A stretch of 64,000 nt of DNA from an uncultured Pelagibacteraceae bacterium (GTDB lineage: Bacteria; Pseudomonadota; Alphaproteobacteria; Pelagibacterales; Pelagibacteraceae): NCBI GenBank assembly GCA_902594405.1, contig CACJMB010000002.1, positions 1-64,000 of the forward strand, read 5' to 3'. This document shows, piece by piece, positions 12,927 to 61,322 of this stretch; the first letter of the stretch is position 1; each line of letters starts with the position of its first letter. The position numbers and the translations under genes were made by a program. Under the pieces are notes generated by a model. That model was given only the letters and a program-made list of their open reading frames with translations, searched no databases and was not told where the DNA came from.

Positions 12927-12960
12927 AAAAAAATTTAGTTATATCAACTTATCATACTGA

Positions 12961-13075
12961 AATGCATGGTGGGAAATCAGTGTGAAATTCATTGGCTCTT
13001 CCTGGAACCGTAAAGTCGGAGCGCCACCCAGTAAAGTCCACTGTTGGATTATGACCAGGAAAAGTCTAATTCTAC
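12961..13075 (+). promoter_or_regulatory. Cobalamin riboswitch (AdoCbl-type leader)
   Basis: ggtgGGAAatcaGTGtgAAattc...GGCTcttCCtggAACcGTaAag...GCGccac...tCCACTG...gaCCaGGAA matches the order of conserved B12-box elements; sits directly upstream of a BtuB-like gene. Confidence 0.85.
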
Positions 13076-13135: not shown

Positions 13136-15007
13136 ATGCTTAAGTTAATTTTAATAATATTAATTTTTATTAGTAAATATGCTGTAGTTTTAGGAAATGA
13201 AAACAAAAGTTATGAAGAAAATTGTTTATGGGATAATCAATCAAATATTCCATGTCTTCAAATTACCAGTTCATTAGATAACTCTTCTCCAATTTCCTAT
13301 TCATCAATTAATAAAACTATTATAACAAAAAAACAAATTGAGCAGAGTGGAGCTGTAGACTTAATAGATATATTAAAAAGTGTACCAGATATTAACATCA
13401 CTCAATCTGGTCCAAAAGGACAGCAAGCTTCGCTTTTTATGAGAGGATCTGGGTCTAATCACACATTGGTAATGATAAATAGTATTCCAATTAATGATCA
13501 GTCAACAACCCAAGGTTTACATGATTTTGGTGTAGATTTTATTCAAACTGTACAACAAATAGAAATATATCCTGGATCATCAAGTTCTCATTTTGGCACT
13601 AATGCAATTGGAGGAGCTATTAATATAATATTGACTGGCGACTATAAAAACTCATTTTCACTAGTTTCAGATAATAATTTAAATTACGAGTTATCAGGTA
13701 ATAAGACGATAGTTAATAATGAATCTTCCCTAAATTTTAAGTTTGGTAGTATAAAAAATGAAACAATCAGCGTCAGAGGTAAATCTGATGATGAGAAAGA
13801 TGGAGTGCAAAATTTTACTCTAAATGTAAATTATGAAAAATTTATAAATGAAAATACAAAGTTTTTTAATACTTCTTATCTAAGACAGACTATAGCAGAA
13901 TACGATAACTCTGACTCTAATCAATCTGGATACGAAGGTGATAATAAAATGGCCTCTTTTCAATTTGGACTTCAAAATTCCATTTATAATAAAAAAAACG
14001 ATTATGTGATTTATTTAAATACTTATGATCGTGAATATGACGAAAGAGGCACTATAGACAGTTATGAAAGTAATGTAATTGGTGCTAAATATATTTTTTC
14101 CAATAATTTAAATGACCAAATTTCTTTTGGATTCGGATCTGAATACAAATATGACTGGGGATATTTTGATAATAATGGATCATATAGTGCATCAACAAAA
14201 GGAAATATTGATAACTTCTCTATTTTTGGAAATATTGGTTGGGAACCATTTGAAACAGTAAATTTTTCTATTTTTACAAGGAGGGATAAACATAAACTAA
14301 CAGGCAATAATTCAACTTTTAAATTAAGTTTTGACAAATCTTTCAATGATTTAAATTTAGGAATTTCACATATGACTGGTTTGAGAAACCCAACATTATA
14401 CGAACTATTTGGTACTGATAATTTTGGTTATTCTGGTAATAGAAATTTAAAACCAGAAAAAAGTAATACTTATGAAATTTATTCAAATTATTCTATAAAT
14501 GAAAATATAAATTTTTTATTAAGAGCATTTAAATCAAACATAAAAAATAATATCGAATATATTAATAATCAATATCAGAACGATGATGATAATATTGATT
14601 TAAACCAATCTGGAATAAATAACGAAATAAATATTAAATTAGAAAATAATTCAATAAAACTATTTTCTTCATTCCTTTCTAGTAAAAAGGAGAATAATAG
14701 TGACCAGCTTAGGAGGCCTGAAAAAAATTATGGATTAATTATATCCAAAAGCTTTAAAAAAAGTTTTTTAAAAGATTTTAATTTAAATCTTTCCTATAAT
14801 CATTATGGAAAACATTTTGATACCCATTCATCAACATTTAGTACAATTGAAATGGATAGTACAGATTTGATAGATTTGAAATTAAGTAAAAAAATTAATA
14901 ATAGTAATTTATTTATAAAAATTTCAAATCTTTTAAATGAAAATTATCAGAGACCACATGGGTACAATCAAGAGCAAAGGTCAATTAAGTTTGGGTTAAA
15001 ATATTAA
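13136..15007 (+). CDS. btuB: TonB-dependent outer-membrane receptor, BtuB-like (cobalamin)
   Basis: Signal peptide, plug domain (DLIDILKSVPDINITQSGPKGQQASLFMRGSGSNHTLVMINSIPIND; SSSHFGTNAIGGAINIIL), beta-rich barrel ending in Tyr; downstream of the B12 riboswitch. Confidence 0.9.
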   Translation: MLKLILIILIFISKYAVVLGNENKSYEENCLWDNQSNIPCLQITSSLDNSSPISYSSINKTIITKKQIEQSGAVDLIDILKSVPDINITQSGPKGQQASLFMRGSGSNHTLVMINSIPINDQSTTQGLHDFGVDFIQTVQQIEIYPGSSSSHFGTNAIGGAINIILTGDYKNSFSLVSDNNLNYELSGNKTIVNNESSLNFKFGSIKNETISVRGKSDDEKDGVQNFTLNVNYEKFINENTKFFNTSYLRQTIAEYDNSDSNQSGYEGDNKMASFQFGLQNSIYNKKNDYVIYLNTYDREYDERGTIDSYESNVIGAKYIFSNNLNDQISFGFGSEYKYDWGYFDNNGSYSASTKGNIDNFSIFGNIGWEPFETVNFSIFTRRDKHKLTGNNSTFKLSFDKSFNDLNLGISHMTGLRNPTLYELFGTDNFGYSGNRNLKPEKSNTYEIYSNYSINENINFLLRAFKSNIKNNIEYINNQYQNDDDNIDLNQSGINNEINIKLENNSIKLFSSFLSSKKENNSDQLRRPEKNYGLIISKSFKKSFLKDFNLNLSYNHYGKHFDTHSSTFSTIEMDSTDLIDLKLSKKINNSNLFIKISNLLNENYQRPHGYNQEQRSIKFGLKY

Positions 15008-57497: not shown

Positions 57498-58207
57498 TTA
57501 TTATTTTTTTTAAAATCTTTCATTTTTAATTGGATGATTAAAAAAATATTCAAATTTATTGATGGCATTAAAAATGGAAAATAATAATTTTTCACTGTTT
57601 TAAAATAATATCTAATAATTTTCTGTATATTTTGAACAGGAGTCAAATGGTCTCTTGCGTGACTTAAGTCTTTTTCTGCAAAATTTTTCCAACCATAATT
57701 TTTTTTTTGTTTAAAATAGTATAAGTATTGAAGCAATCGCCACATTGAACCAGGATCACATGGTAATGCAATTGATATTAATGAGTTAGGTTTTAAAGAT
57801 GGTAATAATTTTAAAAAATCTTCTTCAAAATTCTTAAAATGTTCAAATGTATGAGATGCGATCAGTCTGGTAAATTTTTTTTTAGGAAGTTTCAAATTTT
57901 TATAATTTATAAATTTAAAATTAATATTTTTATACTTTTTAGATAATTTTTTGAGTTGTGTTTTGTATTTTAAATCGTCCACTATTGTATATTCTTTAAT
58001 ATAGGAAAAATCCATAAAATTAATATGTGGTTTTGCACCACCACCAATTTCAATTATGTGTTTGTTGTAATTGTTATTTATTCTAAGACTTAAAATTTTA
58101 TGATTAAAGTAATAGAGAAATTTTGCCAAGCCAGTATAGTTCGTATTACTATAATTATTTTTTGAATAAATTTTACTACTGATTTTTGCTATTTTATATT
58201 TTTTCAT
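57494..58207 (-). CDS. SAM-dependent methyltransferase
   Basis: HIIEIGGGAKPHINFMDF, RLIASHTFEHFKNFEEDFLKLLPSLKPNSLISIALPCDPG. Confidence 0.82.
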   Translation of the reverse strand: MKKYKIAKISSKIYSKNNYSNTNYTGLAKFLYYFNHKILSLRINNNYNKHIIEIGGGAKPHINFMDFSYIKEYTIVDDLKYKTQLKKLSKKYKNINFKFINYKNLKLPKKKFTRLIASHTFEHFKNFEEDFLKLLPSLKPNSLISIALPCDPGSMWRLLQYLYYFKQKKNYGWKNFAEKDLSHARDHLTPVQNIQKIIRYYFKTVKNYYFPFLMPSINLNIFLIIQLKMKDFKKNNN

Positions 58208-58896
58208 TAATTAAAAAATCTATAATAAAATATTTTGTATAAAGCTATCAATCCGTCTTTAAAACGTATTTTTTTTCCTTCTTCATATGTTCTACCATTA
58301 TAGCTTATTCCAACCTCATAAAATTTTAATTTCTGTTTCGCAAGTTTCATTGTAATCTCAATTTCAATTGCAAAAGTTTTTTCAGAAAGATTTAAAGATT
58401 TAAAAATGCCAGTTTTGACTAATTTATAACCTGTTTCAACATCAGAAAAATTAATATTTGTAAGAATACTTACCAAAAGACTTAAAACAAAATTTGCAAA
58501 TCTATTTTTAAAATATAATATTCGTTTTGCACCACTTCCTTGAAATCTAGAACCAAAAACGACGTCTGCTCCTAAATTTTTGGCTGGTAAAAATAACTGA
58601 TTGTAATCTTTTGGATCGTATTCTAAATCGGCATCTTGGATCAATATGAATTCACCGCTTACATTATCTAAAGAATTAATAATTGCGGATCCTTTACCTT
58701 TATTAACTTTGTTTTCTATAAGTTTGTCATACAAGTGTGTATTTTCTTTTAAAAGTGTTAATGTATTATCGGTAGATGCATCATCACTTATGATGATTTC
58801 TAAATCATGATTTTTTTTTTGATTGTTAACTCTCTTAAGTATATCCAGGATATATCTTTCCTCATTAAAAACTGGTATTATTATTGATATTTTCAT
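58207..58896 (-). CDS. DPMS-like glycosyltransferase family 2
   Basis: ISIIIPVFNEERYILDILKRV, DDASTDNT, NKGKGSAIINSL, IQDADLEYDPKDY. Confidence 0.94.
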   Translation of the reverse strand: MKISIIIPVFNEERYILDILKRVNNQKKNHDLEIIISDDASTDNTLTLLKENTHLYDKLIENKVNKGKGSAIINSLDNVSGEFILIQDADLEYDPKDYNQLFLPAKNLGADVVFGSRFQGSGAKRILYFKNRFANFVLSLLVSILTNINFSDVETGYKLVKTGIFKSLNLSEKTFAIEIEITMKLAKQKLKFYEVGISYNGRTYEEGKKIRFKDGLIALYKIFYYRFFN

Positions 58897-58929
58897 TGTT
58901 ATCTTAATAGATTATTTAGAAATTTATAC

Positions 58930-58958
58930 TTTACAATAAAGAATTGTATATCTATAAG
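58930..58958 (+). promoter_or_regulatory. Candidate sigma70-type promoter for the 5S rRNA gene (TTTACA-N17-TATAAG)
   Basis: TTTACA at 58930-58935, 17-nt spacer, TATAAG at 58953-58958, just upstream of the 5S 5' end. Confidence 0.55.
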
Positions 58959-58961
58959 TCA

Positions 58962-59080
58962 TTGCCTGGTAATTATTGCGAAAGGGCAATACCCGATCCC
59001 ATTCCGAACTCGGAAGTCAAGCCTTTCTGCGCCGATGGTACTTTGTCTTAAGACATGGAAGAGTAGGACGTTGCCAGGCT
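58962..59080 (+). rRNA. rrf: 5S ribosomal RNA
   Basis: GCCTGG...CCAGGC closing helix with CCCGATCCCATTCCGAACTCGGAAGTCAAGCC core and GGTACTTTGTCTTAAGACATGGAAGAGTAGG. Confidence 0.96.
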
Positions 59081-59088
59081 AAATCTTG

Positions 59089-59982
59089 ATGAAAAATATC
59101 ATTGTAATAACAGGTGGAGCAGGCTTTGTAGGTTCTAATTTAATTTCATTTCTTTTAAAAAAAACAAATAAAAAATTAATAAGTTTAGACAATTATTCTT
59201 CTGGAAGTAAAAAAAATCATATTCAAAATGCAAGGGTTAAATATTTAACTGGTCATACTAAAAATATAAAAGCAATTTTAAATAAATATAAAAAAAATAT
59301 TCATACAGTATTTCACTTTGGTGAATTTGCTAGAATATTTCAAAGTTTTAAAGAATTTGATAAATGCTATGAATCAAACTCCATAGGAACAAAAGAAGTT
59401 TTTAAGTTTTGTCTAGATAATAAAATTAAAATAATTTATTCAGCTACATCTGCAAGTTTAGGAAATTTAGGAAAAGATAAAAATCTATCTCCATACGCAT
59501 TTACAAAATCAAAAAATCTAGAATTATTAGAAAATTTAAAAAGTTGGTTTAAATTTAAATTTGAAATAATTTATTTTTATAATGTTTATGGACCAAAACA
59601 AATCAAAACAGGCAATATGGCAACAGTTATTGGCATTTTTGAAAATCAATATAAAAATAAAATTCCTTTAACTATTGTTAAGCCTGGTTCACAATCGAGA
59701 AAATTCACCCATATAACTGATACAATAGAAGTTTGCTATGAAGCTTGGAAAAAAAATAAATGCACCCACTACAGTATTTCACACAAAAAATCATATTCAA
59801 TTTTAGAAACAGCTAAAATGTTTAAGACTAAAATTAGATATGTAAAAGCCAGACCTGGAGAAAGATATTCATCTTCATTGGTCAAAATATCACTAAATAA
59901 CAAGATAATTCAAAGATTTGGAAAAATAAATTTGAAAGATTACATTTCTTCGTTTATTAAGGGAAAAAATTATGAAAATTAA
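59089..59982 (+). CDS. NAD-dependent epimerase/dehydratase (GalE-like SDR)
   Basis: [44 protein letters not shown] (YxxxK); ATG at 59089 preferred over TTG at 59086. Confidence 0.9.
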
Positions 59983-60097
59983 AAGTTCACTTAAATCAAT
60001 AAAAAAGCGCGACCTTAATTCTAAACTTGTAAGAAGAAGAGGTAGGGTTTACGTTATTAATAAAACCAACCCTAAGTTTAAAGCAAGACAGAAGTAG
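59972..60097 (+). CDS. rpmJ: 50S ribosomal protein L36
   Basis: Translation [41 protein letters not shown]; not in the supplied ORF track. Confidence 0.94.
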
Positions 60098-60102
60098 TTT
60101 TT

Positions 60103-60213
60103 ATGGATAATGAAAACCATAAAACGACTTGGAATAATTTTACAAAATTTGTTTTGTGGGGAACTGTCGCAGTAATCTTAGTTTTAGTTTTAATGGCAAT
60201 ATTTCTTTTATAA
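60103..60213 (+). CDS. aa3-type cytochrome c oxidase subunit IV-like small membrane protein
   Basis: Translation MDNENHKTTWNNFTKFVLWGTVAVILVLVLMAIFLL*; fits the bacterial COX subunit IV family pattern; not in ORF track. Confidence 0.75.
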   Translation: MDNENHKTTWNNFTKFVLWGTVAVILVLVLMAIFLL

Positions 60214-60233
60214 TATCTTAACTTATTTTTATT

Positions 60234-61322
60234 ATGAATTTAGCCTCAGTTTCAGAAAATCGAGACATTGAAAAGCGTATAGCAATAACCCCAGAAATTG
60301 CAAAAAAATATATCAGTTTAGGATTTAATTTAACACTACCAAATAATTATGGAACTCACTTAGGATTTAATGATGAAGATTATAAAAATCTAGGAGTTAA
60401 TTTTTTAGATAATGAAGAAGAAATAATTAAAAATTCTGAAATTATTATTCAATTAGGATTACCTGTTGATGAAAAATTATCATTGTTTAAAGAAAATCAA
60501 ACTTTGATTGGTTCATTAAATGCTTTCGCAAATAAAGAAAAATTAGAGAATTTAAAGTCGAAAAAAATAAATTGTTTTTCTCTAGAGTTGCTACCAAGAA
60601 TTACAAGAGCGCAATCAATGGATATTTTATCGTCACAAGCTAACCTAGCTGGTTATAAAGCTGTAGTAGAAGCTTTTCAAGTTTATGAAAGAGCAATCCC
60701 AATGATGATGACTGCAGCTGGAACAATTCCTGCAGCAAAAGTATTGGTAGTTGGAGCTGGAGTTGCTGGATTACAAGCTATTGCAACAGCTAAAAGAATG
60801 GGAGCTGTAGTATTTGCAACAGATGTAAGGATGGCCTCAAAAGAACAAGTTGAGAGTTTAGGTGGAAAATTTCTTACTGTTGAGGGATCTGAAAATTTAG
60901 AAACTGAAGGTGGTTATGCAAAAGAAGCATCTGATGAATTTAAAAAGAAACAAGAAGAATTACTTTCAGAAACATTAAAAAAAATTGATATAATAATTTG
61001 TACAGCTTTAATTCCAGGTAGAGAAGCTCCAAAGATAATTAAAGAGGAAATGTTTAAAAATTTACAACCAGGTTCAGTTATTTATGATTTAGCAGCAGTT
61101 CAAGGAGGAAATACCGTATTTACTGAAGTTAATAAAATTGTCGAAAAAGACGGCGTTAAAATTTTGGGTGAGGCGAATATATTAAATAAATTACCCGTAT
61201 CAGCTTCTAATTTATATGCTAAAAATGTATTTAATTTTATCTCTAATTTACAAGATAAAGAAAATAAGAAATTAAATATTAATTTAGAAGATGAAATAAT
61301 AGAGAAAACACTTATTAAGTAG
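60234..61322 (+). CDS. pntA: NAD(P) transhydrogenase subunit alpha, part 1
   Basis: ENRDIEKRIAITPEIAKKYISLG, ARITRAQSMDILSSQANLAGYKAV-like, VLVVGAGVAGLQAIATAKRMGAVVFATDVR. Confidence 0.97.
   Translation: MNLASVSENRDIEKRIAITPEIAKKYISLGFNLTLPNNYGTHLGFNDEDYKNLGVNFLDNEEEIIKNSEIIIQLGLPVDEKLSLFKENQTLIGSLNAFANKEKLENLKSKKINCFSLELLPRITRAQSMDILSSQANLAGYKAVVEAFQVYERAIPMMMTAAGTIPAAKVLVVGAGVAGLQAIATAKRMGAVVFATDVRMASKEQVESLGGKFLTVEGSENLETEGGYAKEASDEFKKKQEELLSETLKKIDIIICTALIPGREAPKIIKEEMFKNLQPGSVIYDLAAVQGGNTVFTEVNKIVEKDGVKILGEANILNKLPVSASNLYAKNVFNFISNLQDKENKKLNINLEDEIIEKTLIK

What the first reader, a model, noticed from the sequence alone, without database searches (positions are those of the whole stretch)
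58930..59080. Stand-alone 5S rRNA with its own promoter at the island boundary
The 5S gene is separated from any 16S/23S by at least 59 kb of surface-glycan genes. The upstream neighbour is divergent, so 5S cannot be read from it. TTTACA-N17-TATAAG ends 3 nt before the mature 5' end, so the primary transcript may start almost at the mature terminus. A hypervariable region between 23S and 5S is, to my knowledge, described for SAR11 (HVR2); the 23S side is not visible here.
Basis: partly seen in the sequence, partly recalled or inferred. Interest (0 to 1): 0.7.

Follow-up and report, generated by a model that had tools for sequence, protein, structure and literature searches.

The report
SAR11 5S rRNA heads L36 transcript
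In these ocean bacteria the gene for the smallest ribosomal RNA sits 45-60 kb away from the other ribosomal RNA genes (already known), and comparison of 74 genomes shows it carries its own conserved promoter and appears to be the first gene of a transcript that also encodes ribosomal protein L36.

Summary
A complete 5S gene lies at 58965-59079 (+). It is the only one found in this genome, while 16S-tRNA-23S is on another contig. The separation itself (HVR2 / O-chain island between 23S and 5S) is published SAR11 biology (PMC2217521, PMC3815206, PMC11898729).

New here is comparative. In this one window the promoter is not above AT-rich background. Across 74 same-family genomes, however, a TTKACA-N16/17-TATAAN box ends 6-7 nt before the CCTGG start of 5S in 65; 54 score >=10/12 against 3.8% of shuffles. 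The 17 sister-family genomes lack the promoter and keep a 23S-linked 5S with a strong processing stalk, which the 74 have lost.

"Stand-alone" is misleading. In all 74, rpmJ (L36) follows: 8-23 nt after 5S in 44, or behind a sugar epimerase that itself starts a few nt after 5S in 28. No room exists for a terminator, so 5S is probably the 5' leader of an L36 mRNA.

In the sister family the same island sits between an intact 16S-23S-5S operon and rpmJ. So the 5S gene changed sides of the island, rather than the island splitting the operon. TSS and co-transcription are inferred, not measured.

The parts
58207..58896 (-). Last island gene before 5S: glycosyltransferase family 2, divergent from 5S
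   Evidence: ORF list; Pfam PF00535 1.9e-27
58930..58935 (+). -35 box TTTACA of the 5S promoter
   Evidence: sequence; conserved position in 74 relatives
58953..58958 (+). -10 box TATAAG, 17 nt after the -35 box, 6 nt before Rfam 5S start
   Evidence: sequence; conserved in relatives
58964..58965 (+). Predicted transcription start (+1), equal to or within 1-2 nt of the mature 5S 5' end
   Evidence: inferred from -10 spacing; not measured
58965..59079 (+). 5S rRNA gene (only copy found in this genome)
   Evidence: Rfam RF00001 91.9 bits, full length
59080..59088 (+). 9-nt linker between 5S and the next start codon; no terminator; likely single-strand AU-rich cleavage site
   Evidence: sequence; no terminator-like site at 58600-60300; cleavage inferred
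59089..59982 (+). NAD-dependent epimerase/dehydratase (SDR) gene, probably co-transcribed with 5S
   Evidence: Pfam PF01370 1.8e-28; homologue in same position in 28 of 74 genomes
59972..60097 (+). rpmJ, ribosomal protein L36; overlaps epimerase stop by 11 nt
   Evidence: Pfam PF00444 5.2e-17; present downstream of 5S in 74 of 74 genomes
60099..60160 (+). pntA RNA motif (RF01810) before the pnt transhydrogenase genes
   Evidence: Rfam 85.1 bits
1..58896 (.). Right part of the O-chain / HVR2 surface-glycan island (contig starts inside it)
   Evidence: Pfam: carbamoyltransferase, methyltransferase, ABC transporter, GDP-mannose dehydratase, nucleotidyltransferase, glycosyltransferase, O-antigen ligase; low GC

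Best explanation
In the family of this genome (Pelagibacteraceae, SAR11) the 5S gene has left the rRNA operon and lies at the far edge of the O-chain island. It is transcribed from its own sigma-70-type promoter, placed so that RNA polymerase starts at, or within 1-2 nt of, the mature 5' end; no 5' processing stalk is needed and none is left. The 3' end is made by cleavage of a longer transcript, because transcription runs on with no terminator into rpmJ (ribosomal protein L36), either directly or through an epimerase gene. Thus 5S is the 5' leader gene of an L36 mRNA, and 16S-23S and 5S come from two separate promoters. In the sister family the order is 16S-23S-5S-[island]-rpmJ; here it is 16S-23S-[island]-5S-rpmJ, so 5S changed sides of a pre-existing island locus. 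Shown: gene positions, conservation of the promoter, loss of the stalk, linkage to rpmJ, synteny. Inferred: actual start site, co-transcription, the cleavage step and its enzyme, direction and mechanism of the move.
For: Single 5S and 16S-Ile-Ala-23S on another contig. 23S-5S distances in relatives are 45.8, 46.2, 55.4, 55.8 and 61.9 kb. Promoter box 6-7 nt before 5S in 65/74 same-family genomes. Score >=10/12 in 54/74 against 3.8% of dinucleotide shuffles, >=11 in 33/74 against 0.3%. The best promoter in the 150 nt upstream falls in the 5-9 nt bin for about 49 genomes; mean upstream identity is 40%, 65 clusters at 70% identity, 48 of 65 representatives >=10. Score >=10 is as common with a divergent upstream gene (11/14) as with a co-directional one (about 41/58). 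Sister family, 17 genomes: no score above 8, flanks pair at mean -15.2 kcal/mol (z -3.9) against -3.3 (z +0.2) in the 74. rpmJ follows 5S in 74/74: 44 at 8-23 nt, 28 through a homologous epimerase starting 6-28 nt after 5S with its stop from 43 nt before to 32 nt past the rpmJ start. Three T-runs of >=5 in 74 linkers; no terminator in the window segment. The same-family genomes tested for both and without a 5S match (G032, G072, G109) also lack rpmJ. Synteny frame prmC-DUF4167-M23-16S-23S ... rpmJ-pnt in both families, with the island between 5S and rpmJ (53.8-78.3 kb) in the sister family.
Against: No transcript data were available. The scan in this window alone does not separate the promoter from background. 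Very short gaps are common in streamlined SAR11 genomes, so tight spacing alone is weak evidence of co-transcription. Two of 74 genomes have a minus-strand gene between 5S and rpmJ. Read-through from co-directional island genes is possible in 58 relatives. 23S in this genome is masked, so its 3' side could not be read here.
Confidence: 0.8

Rival explanations
1. 5S has its own promoter, but its transcript ends at the 5S 3' end by factor-dependent or non-canonical termination; rpmJ and the epimerase merely sit close because the genome is streamlined and are read from a promoter inside 5S or from minor read-through.
For: SAR11 genomes are packed, so short gaps are expected (own knowledge). Two genomes break the 5S-rpmJ linkage with a minus-strand gene.
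Against: rpmJ linkage holds across 74 genomes of several genera. Linkers of 8-23 nt hold no terminator, and only 3 of 74 carry a T5 run. In the epimerase type, rpmJ overlaps or abuts the epimerase stop, which points to one mRNA.
Confidence: 0.2
2. 5S is read from upstream island genes or from a long 16S-23S-island transcript and cut out; the promoter-like box is AT-rich chance.
For: The upstream gene is co-directional in 58 of 72 relatives, and a single-window scan does not single the box out.
Against: Box position is fixed in 65/74 despite 40% mean upstream identity. The box is equally good where the upstream gene is divergent. The processing stalk is gone. The island is about 21-80 kb and mixed-strand, so stoichiometric 5S from it is implausible. 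In G017, 5S-rpmJ stays together while 23S lies elsewhere on the opposite strand.
Confidence: 0.05
3. The 5S separation is an assembly artefact and a second 5S follows 23S.
For: The window is an edge of a 21-contig assembly and the 23S 3' side is masked.
Against: Single-contig relatives show one 5S each, 46-62 kb from 23S where both were found. The published closed genome HTCC1062 has sole 5S and 23S genes flanking a 48-kb region (PMC2217521).
Confidence: 0.02

Closest known systems
SAR11 HVR2 / O-chain biosynthetic cluster between 23S and 5S (Wilhelm 2007 PMC2217521; Viklund 2013 PMC3815206; PMC11898729)
   Same: Same island position between 16S-23S and the sole 5S; same size class; surface-glycan content
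   Different: The passages read describe the split as a marker or recombination site; they do not describe a 5S promoter, loss of the 5S stalk, 5S-rpmJ co-transcription, or the island lying beside an intact operon in the sister family
pntA RNA motif neighbourhood (Meyer 2009 PMC2704228)
   Same: Notes that the gene 5' of the pntA motif in metagenomes is most often 5S or rmlB, and rpmJ in HTCC1062: the same neighbourhood
   Different: Treats it as context of the pntA motif; no claim in the passages read about 5S transcription or 5S-L36 linkage
Independently transcribed 5S of crenarchaea/TACK archaea (review PMC8339473)
   Same: 5S physically separate from 16S-23S and transcribed on its own
   Different: Bacterial sigma-70-type promoter; 5S continues into a ribosomal-protein mRNA
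Subclade IV/V SAR11-like lineages with single 16S-23S-5S operon (PMC7318151)
   Same: Same intact order as the sister-family genomes here
   Different: Paper reports the single operon; here the O-chain island is located directly downstream of it and before rpmJ
Relocated 5S or O-chain cluster in SAR11 Ib.4 and uisw_092 (PMC11898729, PMC12421898)
   Same: 5S and 23S far apart in the chromosome, as in G017 here
   Different: G017 shows that 5S keeps its promoter and rpmJ-pnt neighbours when 23S is elsewhere

Membership tests
5S ribosomal RNA (RF00001) | Full-length match to the covariance model above gathering score | tested here: met
   91.9 bits against 38, positions 1-120
SAR11 split rRNA operon / HVR2 | Sole 5S and 23S flank a large hypervariable surface-glycan region | tested here: met
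   Sole 5S found, 16S-23S on another contig followed by island-type genes, glycan genes in window, closed relatives 46-62 kb; the two contigs cannot be joined in this assembly
SAR11 split rRNA operon / HVR2 | Genome belongs to Pelagibacteraceae | tested here: met
sigma-70 promoter of 5S | -35 and -10 hexamers at 16-18 nt spacing, conserved at fixed distance from the gene | tested here: met
sigma-70 promoter of 5S | Measured transcription start 5-9 nt after the -10 box | not testable with these tools
   needs dRNA-seq or primer extension
5S-rpmJ co-transcript | Same strand, gap too short for terminator and new promoter, conserved across family | tested here: met
   72 of 74
5S-rpmJ co-transcript | RNA molecules spanning both genes | not testable with these tools
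   no transcript data
Classical bacterial 5S in rrn operon | 5S follows 23S with flanking processing stalk | tested here: not met
   flank pairing at background in 74 genomes, strong in sister family

The most novel reading that the evidence does not exclude
A whole family of abundant ocean bacteria makes 5S rRNA as the promoter-proximal part of a ribosomal-protein L36 mRNA, with the 5' end set by transcription initiation (probably a 5' triphosphate, as in eukaryotic 5S) and the 3' end cut from the mRNA. Each 5S made would yield one L36 message, coupling the two 50S parts and decoupling 5S from 16S-23S.
Probability: 0.6. Interest if true: 0.65.

Novelty: new variant of a known kind. Interest (0 to 1): 0.5.

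Why it matters
rRNAs are normally balanced by being cut from one transcript. Here one of the ocean's most abundant bacterial groups must balance 5S against 16S-23S from two promoters with a single copy of each, which is testable by RNA 5'/3' end mapping. It also changes the account of HVR2: the island did not need to break the rRNA operon, because the sister family has the same island next to an intact operon and the 5S gene is what moved. Finally, 5S-rpmJ is a stable right-hand anchor for finding this island in long reads.

Tried and rejected
The 23S covariance search of this genome found nothing because the gene is masked, not absent; the 5.8S-like hit at C12:4651-4800 is the 23S 5' end. The 148-genome 23S search failed and was replaced by 14 chosen genomes. 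Considered and rejected: the promoter as proven from this window alone (one search says no); 5S on a phage record (no match among phages). The DNA pattern scan for 5S-rpmJ returned many unrelated genomes through its loose pattern; only the 53 loci with a 5S match next to rpmJ were kept. The 16S upstream region was compared: a distinct conserved box (TTGATT-N16-TATAAGC) lies about 210-240 nt before 16S in most relatives, so 16S-23S and 5S do not share one promoter sequence. A fold of 5S plus downstream RNA was not better than shuffles, so it gives no evidence of a structured linker.

Full report
What is there. Rfam places a full-length 5S rRNA at 58965-59079 (+), 91.9 bits, and no second 5S is found in the assembly of 1,245,792 bases. 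The window is the first 64 kb of contig C2. The 16S, tRNA-Ile, tRNA-Ala and the start of 23S are on contig C12, after prmC-, DUF4167- and M23-type genes (named by eye from the sequences, not by a family search) and followed, beyond a withheld stretch of N, by further island-type genes. The window up to 58896 is surface-glycan DNA: carbamoyltransferase, glycosyltransferases, GDP-mannose dehydratase, ABC transporter, O-antigen ligase.

What is already known. [quoted passage not shown] 2007 (PMC2217521). It has been extended to other SAR11 genomes and LD12 (PMC3815206 and PMC4053759), and the two rRNA parts are used as island markers in PMC11898729.

Is the promoter real? In the window: TTTACA (58930-58935), 17 nt, TATAAG (58953-58958), then 6 nt to the Rfam start. 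A scan of this one region finds as many promoter-like sites as its shuffles, so the single case proves nothing. I therefore took 5S loci from 74 genomes of the same family (f1, this one included) and 17 of the other family in the order (f2). In f1 the box is at the same distance from 5S, 6 or 7 nt, in 65 of 74. 54 score at least 10 of 12 (counting TTTACA as a full -35), against 3.8% of dinucleotide shuffles of the same 60 nt and 1.6% of control positions in the same loci. 33 score at least 11, against 0.3%. Upstream sequences are otherwise diverged (mean ungapped identity 0.40, 65 clusters at 70%), and 48 of 65 cluster representatives still score at least 10. The box is as common where the upstream gene is divergent (11 of 14) as where it is co-directional (about 41 of 58). 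In f2 no genome exceeds 8.

Start and processing. With a -10 box ending 5-6 nt before the first G of helix I, the expected start is that G or its neighbour. In genomes whose 5S begins GCCGG instead of GCCTGG, the box keeps its distance to the G. In f2 the sequences flanking 5S pair strongly (mean -15.2 kcal/mol, z -3.9), a classical processing stalk. In f1 they do not (-3.3, z +0.2). Promoter gain and stalk loss thus go together. The start itself is inferred.

5S is not alone. In all 74 f1 genomes rpmJ (L36) lies downstream on the same strand: in 44 its start codon is 8-23 nt after the 5S end, and in 30 it is 860-956 nt away. Of these 30, 28 have a homologous epimerase starting 6-28 nt after 5S, whose stop lies from 43 nt before to 32 nt past the rpmJ start; two have a minus-strand gene instead. 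In the window the epimerase starts at 59089 and rpmJ overlaps its end by 11 nt. Only 3 of 74 linkers carry five Ts, and no terminator-like site occurs in 58600-60300. Co-transcription of 5S with L36 is the plain reading, though SAR11 genomes are tightly packed in general. Same-family genomes without a 5S match that were tested for rpmJ (G032, G072, G109) also lack rpmJ, as expected if an assembly gap took both. In the named collection, 53 loci show a 5S match with rpmJ 10-30 nt beyond it, nearly all of them titled Pelagibacteraceae.

The island did not split the operon. In f2 (G023, G004, G029) the left frame is the same (prmC, DUF4167, M23, 16S, Ile, Ala, 23S), then 5S with its stalk, then a long glycan island with O-antigen ligase, GDP-mannose dehydratase and glycosyltransferases, then tRNA-Val, rpmJ and the pnt genes. 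The 5S-to-rpmJ distance is 53.8-78.3 kb in six genomes. In f1 the 23S-to-5S distance is 45.8-61.9 kb in five genomes. The same island locus therefore exists in both, and only the side on which 5S sits differs. The intact operon is taken as ancestral on general grounds. A single operon in subclades IV and V was reported in PMC7318151; whether f2 is subclade IV was not tested. How 5S moved is unknown; a 5S copy on each side followed by loss of the inner one is one route.

Two promoters. The 16S side has its own conserved box (TTGATT-N16-TATAAGC) about 210-240 nt before 16S in most relatives. It differs in its discriminator from the 5S promoter. Single-copy 5S and single-copy 16S-23S must therefore be balanced by promoter strength and decay.

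Limits. The nearest earlier remark found is in PMC2704228, where 5S or rmlB is the usual gene before the pntA motif.

Noticed in passing
window 12954-13034 (+): A strong AdoCbl-II (cobalamin) riboswitch match (95.3 bits) lies inside the surface-glycan island, before the ORF at 13136-15007.
   Followed up: no
window 60099-60160 (+): pntA RNA motif (RF01810) directly after rpmJ and before the pnt transhydrogenase genes; function unknown in the literature read.
   Followed up: no
L063, L069 (G076, G116): Two relatives have a minus-strand ORF between 5S and rpmJ (gap 860-877 nt), breaking the otherwise universal co-directional linkage; rpmJ there needs another promoter.
   Followed up: partly
L014, L259, L260 (G017): 5S-rpmJ-pnt (plus strand, about 608 kb) and 16S-23S with glycan genes (minus strand, about 170 kb) are far apart on one contig, like the relocated island reported for Ib.4 in PMC11898729.
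   Followed up: partly
L246, L250, L257 (f2 genomes): In the sister family a tRNA-Val(GAC) marks the island edge just before rpmJ; tRNA-Val and tRNA-Met are also the site of the relocated cluster in Ib.4 (PMC11898729).
   Followed up: no
L278 with G064:C1:371252: G064 has only about 24 kb between the 16S end and 5S, so an island of about 21 kb, much smaller than in the other relatives.
   Followed up: no
L003 4991-10009 (G000:C12): About 5 kb covering most of the 23S gene and its 3' side reads N in the stored genome.
   Followed up: no
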